Assembly: GCA_024762925.1 (NCBI GenBank)
Contig: JANTGM010000040.1
Coordinates: 10,001 to 46,652 of the forward strand
Source: Kofleriaceae bacterium
GTDB taxonomy: Bacteria; Myxococcota_A; Polyangia; Haliangiales; Haliangiaceae
Length of the DNA stretch: 36,652 bases
Reading direction: 5' to 3'
Part shown: in pieces, positions 10,118 through 16,077 of the stretch
How the letters are laid out: each line of letters opens with the position of its first letter
Position numbering within the stretch: position 1 is the first letter of the stretch
The notes under the pieces: generated by a model
Database searches by the model: none
Told to the model about the DNA's origin: nothing
Seen by the model: only the letters and a program-made list of their open reading frames with translations
Translations under genes and position numbers: made by a program

Positions 10118-10575
10118 CTAGTGCGCGATCCATGGACATTGATTCGTGATCGCGAAGTCAGCTCGTTTGCTGGCGAGGCGGGACTAATCGCCAAGTCAAC
10201 TGTCCGGGGCGGAGTGGGCTCACGGGAATTTCGTCGCTTTGTTGAGCGGCAGCTCATCCGGGTGCTGCGACCAGGACATGTGGTTTGCATGGACAATCTC
10301 AACGCCCACAAGAACAAGCAGGTCCGTCAGCTGATCGAGGGCGCAGGCGCCACCATTTCTGTTCCTCCCGCCCTACAGTCCCGACTTCAACCCAATCGAA
10401 GCCGCATGGGCGAAGATGAAGCATCTCATTCGTAAATACTCTGCGACGTGCCTCGGCAGTCTCCGCCAAGCTATCTATCGGGCTTGCGCGAAGATTCGCC
10501 CTTCCGACATCAGAGGCTGGTTTCGGTACTGTGGATATGCTGCCTGATTTTCTATGCCTATGATCCAGACACGAG
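10118..10575 (+). mobile_element. IS630-family insertion sequence remnant (internally deleted)
   Basis: The left end is CTAGTGCGCGATCCATGG followed by ACATTGATT. The right end (10552-10575) ends CCAGACACGAG, which resembles the right end of element 15715-15876 (ATCAGACACTAG). Between them is only the C-terminal part of an IS630/Tc1-mariner-type DDE transposase. Complete IS630 elements are ~1.1-1.2 kb, so at least half is missing: the HTH domain and the first catalytic Asp are gone, and the left terminus is joined close to the DDE core. The element is not autonomous. Confidence 0.72.
10175..10547 (+). pseudogene. IS630 family transposase, C-terminal fragment with frameshift
   Basis: One frame reads FRRFVERQLIRVLRPGHVVC then MDNLNAHKNKQVRQLIEGAG, the second-Asp block of the IS630 DDE domain. 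Near 10350 the match jumps frame and continues as FLFLPPYSPDFNPIEAAW (third catalytic acid, Glu) through to a WFRYCGYAA C-terminus with TGA at 10545-10547. The N-terminal DNA-binding domain and first Asp are absent, and the frameshift separates the remaining two catalytic acids. Programmed frameshifting is known for some IS elements, but with the N-terminus missing this copy is dead either way. Confidence 0.78.
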
Positions 10576-10581
10576 TGCCTG

Positions 10582-10866
10582 ATGTTCATCGCTCGCTTGC
10601 CCCAGCACTCTACGGCAAGGTTTTCGGGACGCCGAGATGTGCCGCAGATCGGGACTCAGACGACCGAAGAGGTGAGATACACGTTAGTCGTGGGTTCGGG
10701 CGTCGCGGTCTACATCTGCCCGGTGGATGGCGCGTGGTTTGACCGAGGAGAACGTTTTCATGCCACCGGTTTCGTCCAGGAGCGCAGACGCCAGGAAGGG
10801 AACCAGGAGGCCGCTCGCGCTGTCCTCGCAGTCACTGCCCACGGTCGCTTCTTCAAGCGTTCCTAG
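10582..10866 (+). pseudogene. Possible zf-TFIIB-like protein gene remnant
   Basis: Immediately right of the IS630 remnant a plus-strand frame contains [17 protein letters not shown], followed by a charged segment ([15 protein letters not shown]). This resembles the C-terminal knuckle of the TFIIB-type zinc-finger proteins common in delta-proteobacteria (CPxxGxWFDRGEL followed by a helix). Only one Cys-containing half is visible and the upstream part is lost at the IS630 boundary. It overlaps the 3' end of the nagD frame on the other strand. It is either a truncated convergent gene or a chance match. Confidence 0.35.
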
Positions 10867-11631
10867 CGAGGCCACCGACTCGATGATGTGGGAGGGCTGG
10901 TAGGAGAAGCGCTGCACGTCTTCTCGCCGAGTGACACCGCTGAGCACCAAGATGGTCTCCATGCCTGCTTCGATGCCACCAATGATGTCGGTGTCCATTC
11001 GGTCGCCGACCATGACCGCATTCTCGGAGTGCACGCCAAGGTAGTTGAGGGCGGTGCGCATCATGAGTGGATTGGGTTTGCCCACGAAGAAAGGGGTGAC
11101 GCCAGAGGCTTTCTCGAGGAGCGCGGCCATGGCTCCACATGCGGGTTCGATGCCCTTCTCCGAGGGGCCAGAGGCATCCGGGTTGGTGGCGATGAAGTGG
11201 GCACCGCCAGTGAGCAGGCGTACCGCGCAGGAGATTTGATCGATGTTGTACGCGTGAGTTTCTCCGAGGACCACGTACTCGGGATCCTGATCCGTGAGGA
11301 CCCAGTCGATGCCGTGAAGGGCCTCGGTGAGTCCGCTTTCTCCGATGACGAAAGCCGTGCCCCCTTTGCCGCGCTGGCTGTGTAGGAACATGGCGGTGGC
11401 CATGGCCGAGGTAAAGATTCGGTCTTTGGGGACTTCCAGGCCGAGCTTTTGAAGGCGATGACTGAGATCCCCTGGTGTGTAGACCGGGTTGTTGGTGAGC
11501 ACCAGGAAGGAATGCCCCTCTCGGCGCAGGGCTGTGATGAATTCAGGGGCTCCCGGGATGACAGTCCGGCCGCTTACGAGCACACCATCCATATCGATGA
11601 TGTAGCTCTTCTTTGTCGTTTCGTTCTTCAT
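10684..11631 (-). CDS. nagD: NagD-type HAD-IIA phosphatase with C-terminal extension
   Basis: The gene encodes 315 residues from the ATG at 11631. Motif I is DMDGVL (nucleophile Asp13, acid/base Asp15); motif II lies in FLVLTNNP; the HAD-IIA cap contains [22 protein letters not shown]; motif III is the Lys of VGKPNP; motif IV is [12 protein letters not shown]. The match to E. coli NagD runs to about IIESVASLG (near 10855). NagD is a cytoplasmic phosphatase with activity on nucleotide and sugar phosphates; the in vivo substrate is uncertain. After the family's usual ~250 residues there is a ~55-residue tail with no similarity to the family. This tail is antisense to the zinc-finger-like remnant and lies next to the IS630 scar, so the original stop may have been lost. 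It is divergent from the DUF2252 operon. Confidence 0.9.
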
Positions 11632-11775: not shown

Positions 11776-13158
11776 ATGAAGCACCTGGCCCTACTCCTGG
11801 CAACAATGGCAGCATCTGCCTGCCAGGTCGAGGAGAACGCGAATCGCGCAGCCTGGCTTCACGCTACCTTGGTGGCGGATCGCTTTGGCGACTTGCAGCG
11901 CAACCCAGAGCTCGTCGCAGCCCAATTCGATCGCATGCAAGAGGATCCTTACTCGTTCCTGCGGGGCACGCTTCCGCAGTACCGCCGGGACGTGACGGAA
12001 CCTTTCTCCATAAACTCGGAGACCCACTTTCTCACCGAGGCGAGCAGCCGTATTCAGCTCGTCGGCGATCCGCACATCGAGAACATCGGCACGTATCAGA
12101 ATCGTTCTGGTGAAATCGTGGTCGAGTTCAACGACTTCGACTCTGCGATCTACGGTCCGTATCACGCCGATGTCTGGCGACTGGCCTTGAGTTGGTACGC
12201 CTTTGGTGCTTCCACCACCTTCAGCAAGACCGAACCGCAAGATTGGCTCGCGGCGGGTGAGCAGGTGGCTCGCGGCTATGCCGACGAAATTCTGGCGATG
12301 GCCGCCGGAAGCGAGACGCCGCCTCTCACCGATAGCGCTGTCTTCGAAGACCTGGTTGAAGAGGCGCAGGAGAATGGAAATGAGCTGGCGGACCTCAAGG
12401 AATTTACCGTCGTCGACGATGATGATCTTCGTCGATTCGATCGGGAAAACCCTGAGATTCTCTCTCTCAATGCTCCCATTACGGCCTGGATCAACGAGTC
12501 GATCCCCACTTGGCTGTCCATTCTTCCCGACGAGGGCCGTGAGCTCGGTGCTCTCAAGGACGTCTCTCGCCGACTTGGCTCCGGCGTTGCGAGTCTCTTC
12601 CTCCAGCGCTACTACCTGCTCTTCGAAGGAGCCAGCGAATCCCCCGATGACGACCTTCTCATCGAGTGGAAAGAGACCCGTGACCCCTGCCTCATCGGCA
12701 CTGGAATCGTCGAGGCTGCTCGCCTCTTCACCAGCAACGCCCAGCGCGTCACGGTGCTGCAACGTCGCGCTCATGCCGACCCGATGACCGACCCCTACTC
12801 CGGGTGGCTTGGGGAAGAGCCCTGGTCGTTTCGGTCGCGGCGCAATAGCGGCTTTCATCAAGGCATCGGCCGCAATCGCATCCAGCGGCGGCTGCGGAAT
12901 GGCCTTTGGGGCCGCGAAGAGCTCGAGGCCGCAGGCTACGCAACCGGGCAGCTCCTCGCCCGGACCCACGCCCGGCCACAAACGATGGATGAAACCTCCG
13001 CTCTCGATGCCATAGCAGACGTCCTCGAAGGACGCACAGATGAATTCGTTGCCGAGGCTCGCGAACGCATCAATCTCATGGGGCCACAGCTGGTAGATGA
13101 TTTCCGACTCTTTAGCATCTTGCGCGAGCAACACGGTCCTGCTCTGGATCTGCGATGA
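11776..13158 (+). CDS. DUF2252 family lipoprotein
   Basis: This 460-residue protein starts with a lipoprotein signal ([15 protein letters not shown], Cys16 in lipobox ASAC). The mature part matches DUF2252: [10 protein letters not shown] (family SPFAFFRG), then [11 protein letters not shown] (residues 96-105, family GDaHlgNFG) and [13 protein letters not shown] (118-129, family NDFDE..PGP), followed by the helical [13 protein letters not shown]. These two motifs correspond to the catalytic loop and the metal-binding Asp of aminoglycoside-phosphotransferase-like kinases, and the key D, H, N and D residues are kept. DUF2252 members that I know of lack a secretion signal, so an exported member is notable because ATP is not expected outside the cytoplasm. 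It is first in a four-gene operon and shares ATGA with the next gene. Confidence 0.85.
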
Positions 13159-14231
13159 AGCATCTCGCAGTCATTGCCCTTCTCCTGTGGCCGTCCCTGG
13201 CGATTGCAGACGAACTCGCACCGGCTGAGCCTGAACCTGCTGCGCTGCAGCCTCTTGGCGAAGTTTCCGCAGAGTTCGCCAATGCATCCGTCGGTGGCCA
13301 GAAGAACAACGCCTTCGAAATCCGCCGAGCCGAGTTTGGGCTGATGCGTCGTGGCCCGCACCTTCTTGGGGGAGAGATCATTCTCGAAGCCATTCGCTCT
13401 GCCGGTACTCAGAGTTTTTCGGGTATCGATGGAGATTCCTTGCTCATGCGTCTCAAGCGCGCCTGGGGCTATGCCCGACAGGACGTGGGCCCTGTCGTCG
13501 TCGAAGGACGCTTTGGTTTGTTGCCCACGCCCTGGGTCGAGGCGACAGAGGATGACTCTCGCCTTCGCTACCTCGAACAGCTCACCGCCGAGCGTCTGGG
13601 GATGTATTTCACCACCGACCTTGGAGCCGTTGCATCGGTGACCGCCCTTGGGGGTCGTTTGCAAGTTCAGGCTGGCGTGTTCAATGGCGAGGGACGCAAC
13701 CAGACCGAGCAGAACAACGGCAAGAACACCCAGCTGCTCATCAGCGGAACCGCTGTCGAACACGATATTGCTGGAGAGCCCCTTCGCCTGCGCCTCTACG
13801 CCGGTGGACAGGAGGGCTCGTTTGGCCCCAGCGCCGCAGCTGCCCATCGACTCTCCGTGGGCATCAGCGCCTTGCATCACAATCTCTCCGCAGGCTCGGA
13901 GTTGCATCATGCCTACGGCGTCGGCGATGTCTCCAGCCGCGATAGCCGAGGGCTCGGCCTGTGGATGCGCGCTCGCTGGAAGGCACTCAACGTCCTCTTT
14001 CGCTACGACAATCATCGCGAGGATCTGCAGCGCGAAGAGACAAGCTCGCATCTTCTCCTAGGGGGCCTCTTTGGAGAGCGGGAGATCGATTCGTCGCTAG
14101 TGCGACTGGGCCTGGCGGGGCGCTACGAGAAGGCCGATACCAACGCCAGCCCGCTTCCAGGGCTCGCCAGTGCCGGCACCATCAAGTCGGTTCTCCTCAT
14201 GTTCTCCGCTCGCTTCGGAAGGTGGCCCTAA
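13155..14231 (+). CDS. Outer-membrane beta-barrel (porin O/P-like) protein
   Basis: The 358-residue protein has a Sec signal peptide ([20 protein letters not shown], cleavage after AIA). The remainder is a run of amphipathic beta strands with Gly-rich turns. EIRRAEFGLMRRGPHLLGGE near the start recalls the phosphate-selective porin O/P family, as does the stretch of alternating strands and the predicted pore residues RYLEQLTAERLGMYFTTDLG. A barrel in the outer membrane is likely; the last residue is Pro rather than Phe. The start overlaps the DUF2252 stop by 4 bases (ATGA), and the stop overlaps the next start by one base (TAATG), so translation is coupled on both sides. Confidence 0.78.
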   Translation: MKHLAVIALLLWPSLAIADELAPAEPEPAALQPLGEVSAEFANASVGGQKNNAFEIRRAEFGLMRRGPHLLGGEIILEAIRSAGTQSFSGIDGDSLLMRLKRAWGYARQDVGPVVVEGRFGLLPTPWVEATEDDSRLRYLEQLTAERLGMYFTTDLGAVASVTALGGRLQVQAGVFNGEGRNQTEQNNGKNTQLLISGTAVEHDIAGEPLRLRLYAGGQEGSFGPSAAAAHRLSVGISALHHNLSAGSELHHAYGVGDVSSRDSRGLGLWMRARWKALNVLFRYDNHREDLQREETSSHLLLGGLFGEREIDSSLVRLGLAGRYEKADTNASPLPGLASAGTIKSVLLMFSARFGRWP

Positions 14232-14797
14232 TGCTTGCTCGGCCTCCCTCGGTTCTCCATCCTCTGGGCGCTTTCAGCTCTACGTTGCTCAGGGCCTCAC
14301 TTGCCCCACTCACTCTCGTGCTGCTGTCGTCCTGCAGCCTGTCGGTAGACGATGATCCAAAGGGCTTCGACACGCCTCTCGACGCGGCTCCTGATGCGCC
14401 GTCGCGGGCAGAGCTTATCATCAACGAAGTTGCCCCCAGCGGTCGACCCGACGATTGGTTCGAGGTCTACAACGGAACCTCTGAGGCCATTTCGCTCCAG
14501 CCCTATGGATATAGCGATAGTGCCGATCGGCCTCCGGTGGGCTTTGGGCGGAATGTCACCCTGGCCCCAGGCGAATACTACGTCGAGTTTCTCACCGACA
14601 ATCACCCCGGCTTTGGCCTCGGCTCGGAAGAAGCCATCTTGCTCTACCACCGCACCACTCTCATCGACGAGATGGCCTGGCTCGAGTCCGATGGAATTGA
14701 GGATGGCTCTCTTTCTCGCTACCCCGACATCGTCGGAGCCCCCCTTGTCACCACCTCACCCACCCCAGGCTTTCCCAACGAGGCAGACGTTCCGTGA
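14231..14797 (+). CDS. Lamin tail domain (LTD) lipoprotein 1
   Basis: The product has 188 residues: a signal with lipobox LSSC (Cys35), an Asp/Pro/Ala spacer (DTPLDAAPDAPS), then one lamin tail domain (~residues 60-185). The LTD hallmarks are in order: ELIINEVAPSG, DDWFEVYNGT, LAPGEYYVEF, LGSEEAILLYH, IDEMAWLESDG, SLSRYPD and TPGFPNE. Bacterial LTDs are Ig-like beta-sandwiches on secreted or surface proteins, often linked to binding or nuclease partners. The start is the ATG at 14231, overlapping the porin stop by one base; the stop overlaps the next start (GTGA). No catalytic domain is present, so a structural or adhesive role is likely. Confidence 0.85.
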   Translation: MLARPPSVLHPLGAFSSTLLRASLAPLTLVLLSSCSLSVDDDPKGFDTPLDAAPDAPSRAELIINEVAPSGRPDDWFEVYNGTSEAISLQPYGYSDSADRPPVGFGRNVTLAPGEYYVEFLTDNHPGFGLGSEEAILLYHRTTLIDEMAWLESDGIEDGSLSRYPDIVGAPLVTTSPTPGFPNEADVP

Positions 14798-15609
14798 AAC
14801 CTTCTTTGCTACTTATTCTTATGGCGGCGATTCCGGCTTGCTCCAATGCGTCCGATACCGATCCGGATGCCAGCCCGTTCTTTGCGGACGCCGAGCCGTC
14901 TCCCACCGATGCCACTCCCAAGATCGATGCCGAGCCAGAGAGGGACGACGATGCCGGTGAGGTGCCCGTGTCTCTTCGCATCAACGAGGTGCTCAAGAAC
15001 TCTCCGGGACCAGACGATACCCACGAGTTCATCGAGGTATTCGGTGGTGCCAACCTGAACCTGAGTGACTTCTCTCTTGTCGTACTGGAGGGTGATATCG
15101 ATTCGGGTAGCACCGTCGGTGTGGTCGATATGCTCATCGACCTGGGGACGACCAATGGCGATGGCTTTTACGTCACCGAGTTTTTCGGAGACGAAATCGA
15201 AAACGGCAGCCTGACGATTCTTCTGGTCCGTGGCCTCGACCCGGAAACCGTGGAAGGGGCCGACCTGGATACCGACGATGATGGCCAGCTCGATACAACT
15301 CCATGGCAAGAGCTCGTCGATTCCGTGGCCCTTATCGACGATCCTCTCAACCCTGGCTACTCACCAAATCTTCTCACCGATGACCTTGGCGGCGAAGATG
15401 AGGAGTTCGTCGGAGCCTCTCGCTTTCCCGATGGCATGAACACCGGTGCGGTGACGGATTGGGTTCGCGCCAATAGCGAAGGTGTCGGCCTTGAAGATCT
15501 TCTGGGCGCAGGCGGTGCTGAATGTGATGGATGCGGCGATACGCCGGCTCGCCCCGGTCGCGCGGTCATCACACCAGGCGCGAGCAACGAGATCGTCTCC
15601 GCGAAGTAG
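14794..15609 (+). CDS. Lamin tail domain (LTD) lipoprotein 2
   Basis: This 271-residue protein starts at GTG 14794, overlapping the previous stop by 4 bases. It has a signal with lipobox IPAC (Cys16), a long acidic spacer (residues ~18-55, rich in Asp/Ala/Pro/Glu), then an LTD-like fold beginning SLRINEVLKNSPG and HEFIEVFGG. The EGADLDTDDDGQLDTTPW insert resembles calcium-binding Asp-rich loops seen in such secreted proteins. It differs clearly from the first LTD protein, so it is not a recent tandem copy. It ends the four-gene operon, about 105 bp before the element at 15715. Confidence 0.82.
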   Translation: MKPSLLLILMAAIPACSNASDTDPDASPFFADAEPSPTDATPKIDAEPERDDDAGEVPVSLRINEVLKNSPGPDDTHEFIEVFGGANLNLSDFSLVVLEGDIDSGSTVGVVDMLIDLGTTNGDGFYVTEFFGDEIENGSLTILLVRGLDPETVEGADLDTDDDGQLDTTPWQELVDSVALIDDPLNPGYSPNLLTDDLGGEDEEFVGASRFPDGMNTGAVTDWVRANSEGVGLEDLLGAGGAECDGCGDTPARPGRAVITPGASNEIVSAK

Positions 15610-15714
15610 CGTCCTTTGGCCAGGAGCGGAGTCGGGTAGCAGCTCGCAATTGCGCAGGCCTGAATCGGTTCTTGTGCAAATCTCGAGGTTGTCGGGCTCC
15701 AACACGTCTAGTAG

Positions 15715-15876
15715 CTAGTGTCTAGGTTCATTGACATTGGTCATCTGAAACGAAGAGAGTTCGTTTGCAGGCAAGGCGGGAAGAGGGAGCTTGCTGGGGC
15801 AAGCGACCGATGAGCAAAGCGGCCAGGGAGCGAAGAGTGGAGTTTGCTTAGTCAATGTCAATGCATCAGACACTAG
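15715..15876. mobile_element. 162-bp MITE-like element C with terminal inverted repeats
   Basis: The left end is CTAGTGTCT, 5 bases, then CATTGACATTG (15715-15739). The right end, read on the other strand, is CTAGTGTCT, 4 bases, then CATTGACATTG (15853-15876). These are clear imperfect terminal inverted repeats ending in CTAG, the target preferred by IS630, where TA is duplicated. The interior is non-coding and includes a perfect GCTTGC-TGGG-GCAAGC hairpin (15789-15804). Its termini resemble those of the IS630 remnant at 10118-10575, so it was probably mobilised by a related transposase. Confidence 0.75.
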
Positions 15877-16077
15877 CCTGGGGGTTTGTCTTAGTGCCAA
15901 CCTGCTCGTTCACCATATGAATTCCGCTCCCCTAGCTGGTGACCAATTCACACAGGCACAATTGCTGGCGAAAAGGCGTGGCTCTTCGTTCCTAGCGACC
16001 ACTTTCGCACTACTATCACCGTAGAGAGCCGCGGTCTTAGCGGCGGATGGATGCCTTGCCTGCGGACGGAACATACG

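What the first reader, a model, noticed from the sequence alone, without database searches (positions are those of the whole stretch)
11776..15609. Four-gene coupled operon: DUF2252 lipoprotein, porin, two lamin-tail lipoproteins
All three junctions overlap (ATGA, TAATG, GTGA), so the products are made together. All four are exported: a kinase-fold lipoprotein, an outer-membrane barrel, and two LTD lipoproteins. I know of no described system with this make-up; it could be a surface modification or phosphate/polymer handling machine.
Basis: partly seen in the sequence, partly recalled or inferred. Interest (0 to 1): 0.62.

Follow-up and report, generated by a model that had tools for sequence, protein, structure and literature searches.

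The report
Myxococcota outer-membrane kinase–porin–lipoprotein operon
Many bacteria related to the myxobacteria carry a linked set of three genes that should place an intact kinase-like enzyme, a membrane channel and a surface-type protein in the cell's outer envelope, where ATP is not expected; what they do together has not been worked out.

Summary
Four coupled genes lie at 11776-15609: a DUF2252 lipoprotein, a 16-strand porin, an LTD lipoprotein and a second LTD-like lipoprotein. In the class, 54 of 64 strong porin matches have the DUF2252 gene next to them (5 more lie at contig ends, 5 lack it). In other classes 31 of 32 strong loci do. The fourth gene is a local extra. DUF2252 is a kinase-like fold with its lobes in swapped order. 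In 66 of 66 module copies the catalytic residues (D98, H100, N103, D120, D122) are kept, and 65 of 66 have the lipobox cysteine, so a competent kinase is predicted outside the cytoplasm, where no ATP is expected. My best model is a capture-channel-enzyme relay at the outer membrane: LTD lipoprotein binds, porin conducts, kinase modifies. A surface-decoration kinase of CotH type is the main rival. Substrate and phosphate donor are unknown; weak neighbourhood evidence points to phosphate/polyphosphate. I found no described system with this make-up (three held papers name DUF2252; the two I read in passages assign no function).

The parts
11776..13158 (+). Gene 1: DUF2252 lipoprotein, permuted protein-kinase-like fold; catalytic D98/H100/N103, D120/D122, Gly loop 268-273, K299
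   Evidence: Pfam DUF2252 E 5.5e-45; model pLDDT 91.8; conservation
13155..14231 (+). Gene 2: 16-strand outer-membrane porin
   Evidence: Model pLDDT 84.8, 16 strands; Foldseek best OprP E 1e-9; VIA Z 22-24 to VhChiP, Omp32, PorB, OmpF, OprP
14231..14797 (+). Gene 3: LTD lipoprotein
   Evidence: Pfam LTD E 8.6e-9; orthologues in 56 of 66 module loci
14794..15609 (+). Gene 4: second LTD-like lipoprotein, not part of the conserved core
   Evidence: No Pfam/NCBIfam hit; hhalign prob 93.8 to gene-3 alignment over 87 columns; only itself matched at E<=1e-4 in the ORF set of the fetched loci
13155..13158 (+). ATGA stop-start overlap of genes 1 and 2
   Evidence: Sequence; same 4-nt overlap in 44 of 66 loci
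14794..14797 (+). GTGA stop-start overlap of genes 3 and 4 (genes 2 and 3 share base 14231)
   Evidence: Sequence

Best explanation
A conserved outer-membrane module that works as a capture-channel-enzyme relay. SHOWN by computation: three co-inherited, coupled genes; a lipoprotein kinase fold with intact catalytic residues and swapped lobes; a 16-strand porin; a lipoprotein with one to five LTD modules on a flexible linker. INFERRED: all three sit at the outer membrane; the LTD lipoprotein binds a ligand or polymer at or near the surface, the porin lets it (or its breakdown product, or the phosphate donor) through, and the DUF2252 lipoprotein, tethered next to the pore, transfers a phosphoryl or nucleotidyl group to it, so that it is trapped, marked or activated. 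The donor would have to be imported nucleotide or polyphosphate, since the envelope has no ATP of its own.
For: Gene order: 54 of 64 strong porin places in the class have gene 1 adjacent, 5 more are at contig ends; 31 of 32 in other classes. Coupling: 4-nt overlap g1-g2 in 44 of 66; g2-g3 overlap of 1 or 4 nt in 25 of 56. Co-inheritance: distance-matrix correlation g1-g2 0.93, g2-g3 0.84, g1-g3 0.81, 0 of 500 permutations as high (shared ancestry alone also gives this). Catalytic residues 66 of 66, K299 58 K and 8 R, Cys 65 of 66. Model pLDDT 91.8; kinase N-lobes (CDC7, PI3K, GSK3, PIM1) align to residues about 226-358, after the catalytic loop. Porin fold. LTD in 10 of 10 gene-3 proteins scanned, 1-5 stretches each. 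The 40 residues after the gene-3 Cys are 86% D/E/S/T/P/G/A/Q/N against 58% in gene 1.
Against: No substrate, donor or activity is known. Sequential fold search of gene 1 gave no hit below E 1.6 and VIA Z at most 4.1. Porin selectivity is not resolved: OprP, chitoporin and general porins tie. In genus g76 three genomes keep the porin (two with the LTD gene detected) without gene 1, and G004 and G159 have the porin alone; in genus g5, G012 and G021 have gene 1 with no porin. 10 of 66 loci have no detected gene 3; three of these end at the contig edge and L037 has a lipoprotein there with no LTD match. Location at the outer membrane is inferred only.
Confidence: 0.38

Rival explanations
1. Surface decoration: the gene-1 kinase phosphorylates envelope proteins (for example the LTD lipoprotein) or a surface glycan, as CotH kinases are thought to do; the porin supplies nucleotide or anchors the complex.
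For: Secreted CotH-like kinase next to a polyphosphate-polymerase-domain gene in the Streptococcus Pel locus, where mutants of SIR_1592 and SIR_1594 change Pel level and aggregation (PMC12345266, passages). LTD copy number varies 1-5 like a surface scaffold.
Against: Gene 1 is not CotH by Pfam; I know of no CotH system with a porin (recalled); no ATP source; porin plus LTD persist without gene 1 in part of genus g76.
Confidence: 0.3
2. Phosphate or polyphosphate handling: the porin is anion-selective and the kinase fold uses or makes polyphosphate or phospho-compounds at the envelope.
For: PPX within 6 kb in 3 of 59 genomes (0.16 expected from 109 matches), PPK in 2 of 59 (0.09 expected from 58); four genomes in all, Poisson 1.3e-4 uncorrected. 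Foldseek rank 1 is phosphate porin OprP. Phosphonate-binding-type gene overlapping gene 1 in L135; AP-superfamily, PhoX and metallophosphoesterase neighbours.
Against: PPX and PPK were noticed before being tested, with thousands of possible families; 55 of 59 genomes show no such neighbour; none of 21 porins matches the Pfam OprO/P family; the window itself has no PPX or PPK neighbour; no control for the phosphatase counts.
Confidence: 0.15
3. Gene 1 is a ligand-binding pseudokinase: it senses a nucleotide or sugar at the envelope and gates or recruits the porin.
For: No ATP in the envelope (general knowledge; PMC11986105 passage); K299 is R in 8 of 66.
Against: All catalytic-Asp and Mg-ligand-equivalent residues are kept in 66 of 66, unusual for a pseudokinase.
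Confidence: 0.12
4. Mere neighbours: the operon is conserved by common descent, without a joint function.
For: Porin or kinase sometimes occurs alone.
Against: Flanks are not conserved between genera while the three genes are; identities to the window copies are 22-37%, so the order outlived most of the sequence.
Confidence: 0.05

Closest known systems
CotH and other secreted protein-kinase-like enzymes
   Same: Kinase-like fold outside the cytoplasm; surface-type companion domains; polyphosphate genes nearby in some loci (PMC12345266)
   Different: Different family (DUF2252, swapped lobes), a lipoprotein, and paired with a porin
DUF2252 (PF10009)
   Same: Gene 1 is a member
   Different: Function of the family unknown; this clade is lipidated and operon-bound, while 12 of 32 non-module rows have no Cys at the lipobox column
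Trimeric 16-strand porins (OprP, Omp32, VhChiP, PorB, OmpF)
   Same: Fold, VIA Z 22-24
   Different: 6-12% identity; no Pfam family for the window protein; conserved NGEG...GK loop motif; constant partner genes
SusCD-type uptake (recalled, not searched)
   Same: Logic of surface lipoprotein plus channel plus envelope enzyme
   Different: No TonB-dependent channel or SusD in the core

Membership tests
DUF2252 (PF10009) | Pfam gathering score over the full domain | tested here: met
   154.5 bits, cut-off 22.3, residues 42-446
Protein-kinase-like (PKL) superfamily | Catalytic D...N five residues apart and a DFG-type Asp | tested here: met
   D98-x4-N103 and D120-F/L-D122 in 66 of 66 for the Asp/Asn positions; [quoted passage not shown]
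Protein-kinase-like (PKL) superfamily | Overall fold match to a solved kinase | tested here: inconclusive
   Foldseek best E 1.6; VIA best Z 4.1 to CDC7, mainly N-lobe; expected if lobes are swapped
Canonical protein kinase order | Gly loop and Lys N-terminal to the catalytic loop | tested here: not met
   Gly loop 268-273 and K299 follow D98/D120
CotH | Pfam CotH match | tested here: not met
   Only DUF2252 at E<=0.1
16-strand porin fold | 16-strand barrel with an inward loop 3 | tested here: met
   16 strands, helix 126-135 between strands 5 and 6; Z 22-24 over about 290 residues
Phosphate porins OprO/OprP | Sequence family membership | tested here: not met
   0 of 21 members match the OprO/P family at E<=0.1
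Phosphate porins OprO/OprP | Arginine ladder and phosphate selectivity | not testable with these tools
   No coordinates or electrophysiology
LTD (PF00932), gene 3 | Pfam gathering score | tested here: met
   36.2 bits, cut-off 34.3
LTD (PF00932), gene 4 | Pfam gathering score | tested here: not met
   No hit at E<=0.1; partial hhalign match
Bacterial lipoproteins | Lipobox cysteine | tested here: met
   Gene 1 Cys in 65 of 66; genes 3 and 4 by sequence
SusCD-type uptake | TonB-dependent channel plus SusD lipoprotein | tested here: not met
   Gene 2 is a 16-strand porin and genes 1, 3 and 4 have no SusD match in Pfam

The most novel reading that the evidence does not exclude
A phylum-wide phosphotransfer system at the bacterial outer membrane: a lipid-anchored, lobe-swapped kinase works beside its own porin with a donor that is not cytoplasmic ATP (imported nucleotide or polyphosphate), acting on a ligand held by LTD lipoproteins.
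Probability: 0.3. Interest if true: 0.88.

Novelty: new variant of a known kind. Interest (0 to 1): 0.6.

Why it matters
Kinases need a phosphate donor, and the Gram-negative envelope is not supposed to have one. A kinase fold with intact catalytic residues, lipid-anchored outside the cytoplasm and bound to a porin in an operon kept across a phylum, makes two open questions testable: what DUF2252 does, and whether phosphotransfer happens at the outer membrane of these bacteria.

Tried and rejected
Single-sequence scan of genome contigs with gene 1 found nothing; the profile scan found 28 loci. PDB sequence searches gave nothing significant for gene 1 (best with the profile YihE 1zyl E 0.53, query 81-134 to chain 184-231) or gene 2. 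NCBIfam gave no hits. Foldseek of gene 1 was uninformative; kinases stand at the top only in the second look. No conserved fourth gene beyond the triad: recurrent flanking clusters were mostly antisense frames of gene 1 or within-genus synteny. Sigma-70 promoter and terminator scans were no better than shuffles. No tandem repeats in the operon. Literature: DUF2252 in 3 held papers (passages read in PMC9758233 and PMC13118837; the third, PMC12395122, seen only in the listing), COG4320 in 0, DUF2252 with porin in 0, 'circularly permuted kinase' in 0; lamin tail domain with CotH in one, listing only. Myxobacterial lipoprotein sorting: passages of PMC8689077 gave no sorting rule, so outer-membrane location stays inferred.

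Rejected: 'found apart in relatives' (fails). Weaker porins (about 100 bits, 8 loci, L225-L232) have no gene 1 and are treated as a separate paralogous family; four weaker porins in the class (L187, L188, L191, L192) likewise; the other weak places were not examined.
Full report
The observation. Searches confirm four same-strand genes at 11776-15609 with junctions ATGA, TAATG and GTGA. Pfam names gene 1 as DUF2252 and gene 3 as LTD; genes 2 and 4 have no Pfam or NCBIfam match. Genes 1, 3 and 4 carry lipoboxes and gene 2 a Sec-type signal by eye. The gene before (10684-11631, minus strand, HAD hydrolase) is divergent, and the next plus-strand gene (16051, TauE/SafE) starts about 440 bases after gene 4, so the run ends at gene 4.

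Conservation in relatives. Searching 56 relatives gave 23 genomes with a gene-1 match. Neighbour checks showed the same order DUF2252-porin-LTD in near and distant relatives. A gene-1 profile matched 120 of 317 genomes of the class at E<=1e-15, and 28 named MAG loci in genome contigs, titled Myxococcota, Myxococcales, Polyangia, Kofleriaceae, Nannocystineae, Deltaproteobacteria, Proteobacteria, Pseudomonadota or plain 'bacterium'. After removing 11 duplicates, 98 loci had a gene-1 hit; 66 of them, the window included, have the porin downstream, and 56 of those 66 the LTD gene. At least 8 of the 32 others end within about 500 bases of gene 1.

The reverse test. With the porin profile, the class search gave 72 of 317 genomes at E<=1e-6. 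Of 64 places at E<=2.4e-25, counted by hand have gene 1 adjacent (G006 and G009 as fragments at contig ends, G148 and G206 in pieces), 5 lie at contig ends (G106, G228, G257, G258, G288), and 5 lack it (G004, G145, G146, G147, G159). In part of genus g76 (G145, G146, G147) the gene upstream of the porin is a peptidase-like gene by eye, and the porin-LTD pair persists in two of the three. In the phylum, 98 of 377 genomes match at E<=1e-10; of 32 strong loci from other classes that I read, 31 have gene 1 next to the porin. L216, the exception, has only about 1 kb of contig upstream. Eight weaker porins have none.

Coupling. The g1-g2 distance is -4 in 44 of 66, -1 in 2, other overlaps in 5, 1 to 70 in 10, unresolved in 5; g2-g3 is -4 in 18, -1 in 7, other overlap in 2, 1 to 50 in 28 and farther in 1, of 56. 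Start codons were chosen as nearest to a -4 overlap, which favours that class. Pairwise distances correlate (0.93, 0.84, 0.81), which shows inheritance as a unit but does not by itself show joint function. Flanks beyond the three genes are not shared between genera.

Gene 1. The alignment A2 of 27 sequences gave a confident model (pLDDT 91.8, pTM 0.91). In window numbering the catalytic motif G97-D98-P-H100-x-E102-N103 is followed by D120-F-D122; the glycine loop G268-x-G270-V-x-S273 and K299 come about 150-200 residues later. In a standard kinase the order is the reverse. [quoted passage not shown] The second-look aligner places kinase N-lobes on model residues about 226-358 with Z up to 4.1; this is weak, as expected for a swapped order, and the plain Foldseek search found nothing. 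Across module copies D98, H100, E102, N103, D120, D122, G270, S273 and R324 are kept in 66 of 66, the lipid cysteine in 65 of 66, K299 in 58 with R in 8. In the 32 other DUF2252 rows the core D/N/D residues are kept (31-32 of 32), while E102 (19 of 32) and the cysteine (20 of 32) are not.

Gene 2. The model (pLDDT 84.8; residues 1-26 and 84-92 low) has 16 strands. Foldseek's first hit is OprP (E 1e-9), then VhChiP and Omp32; by VIA all 16-strand porins tie at Z 22-24, so selectivity cannot be read off. One of 21 members matches Pfam Porin_4 (E 4e-4), none OprO/P. A conserved motif NGEG...E.N.GK (residues 177-190) lies between strands 7 and 8.

Gene 3 and gene 4. LTD was found in 10 of 10 gene-3 proteins scanned, with one to five stretches. 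A low-complexity linker separates the cysteine from the domain. LTD is described as likely affording membrane association in some hydrolases (PMC5118699 passage) and occurs in a putative corynebacterial surface protein (PMC12021427 passage). Gene 4 looks like a diverged LTD lipoprotein. Extra LTD genes next to the core also occur in L071, L149 and L150.

Neighbourhood clues. PPX matches lie within 6 kb of the module in G008, G183 and G291 (3 of 59 genomes; 109 matches; 0.16 expected) and PPK in G008 and G181 (2 of 59; 58 matches; 0.09 expected); four genomes of four families in all. L143 (G181) has PPK 103 bases upstream of gene 1, and in L135 a phosphonate-binding-type protein gene overlaps gene 1. 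I noticed PPX before testing, so the P value is not corrected and should be read as a lead. Among 114 flanking proteins the commonest Pfam family is LTD (5), with PhoX 2, Metallophos 2 and Metalloenzyme 3; there is no matched control.

Mechanism. The tight g1-g2 coupling, the porin and the multi-LTD lipoprotein fit a relay of capture, passage and modification. That is inference. The envelope is held to lack ATP (general knowledge; PMC11986105 passage), so the donor is the key unknown. The CotH precedent (PMC12345266 passages) shows that a secreted kinase fold can sit with a polyphosphate-polymerase-domain gene in a surface-polymer locus, which is why decoration is the strongest rival.

Verdict. 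A real, phylum-wide three-gene envelope module, for which I found no description, made of known folds in a new combination. The parts are well supported; the function is not.

Noticed in passing
window 15709-15880: About 165-bp element with imperfect terminal inverted repeats (by eye) just after the operon; 45 matches in the own genome including itself, up to 86% identical nearly full length: a MITE-like dispersed repeat.
   Followed up: partly
window 10121-10435: Short ORF that looks like an IS630-type transposase remnant (DNLNAHKN motif recalled, not searched).
   Followed up: no
L180, L181, L182 (genus g76): Porin kept without DUF2252, with the LTD gene in two of three; the kinase seems lost in part of this genus while G148 and G149 keep it.
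   Followed up: partly
L035, L036 (genus g5): DUF2252 lipoprotein without a porin, next to a divergent gene for a large TonB-receptor-like protein (about 970 aa, by eye); L032 and L033 have such a gene beside the full module.
   Followed up: no
L228:2013-5310: An LTD-matching protein directly upstream of a weaker porin paralogue with no DUF2252: a possible sister module.
   Followed up: no
L143:3807-5894 and L037:6582-10000: Polyphosphate kinase 1 beside the module (103 bases upstream in L143; about 1.4 kb downstream together with PPX in L037).
   Followed up: partly
L135:7594-8400: Phosphonate-binding-type periplasmic protein gene overlapping the start of gene 1.
   Followed up: no
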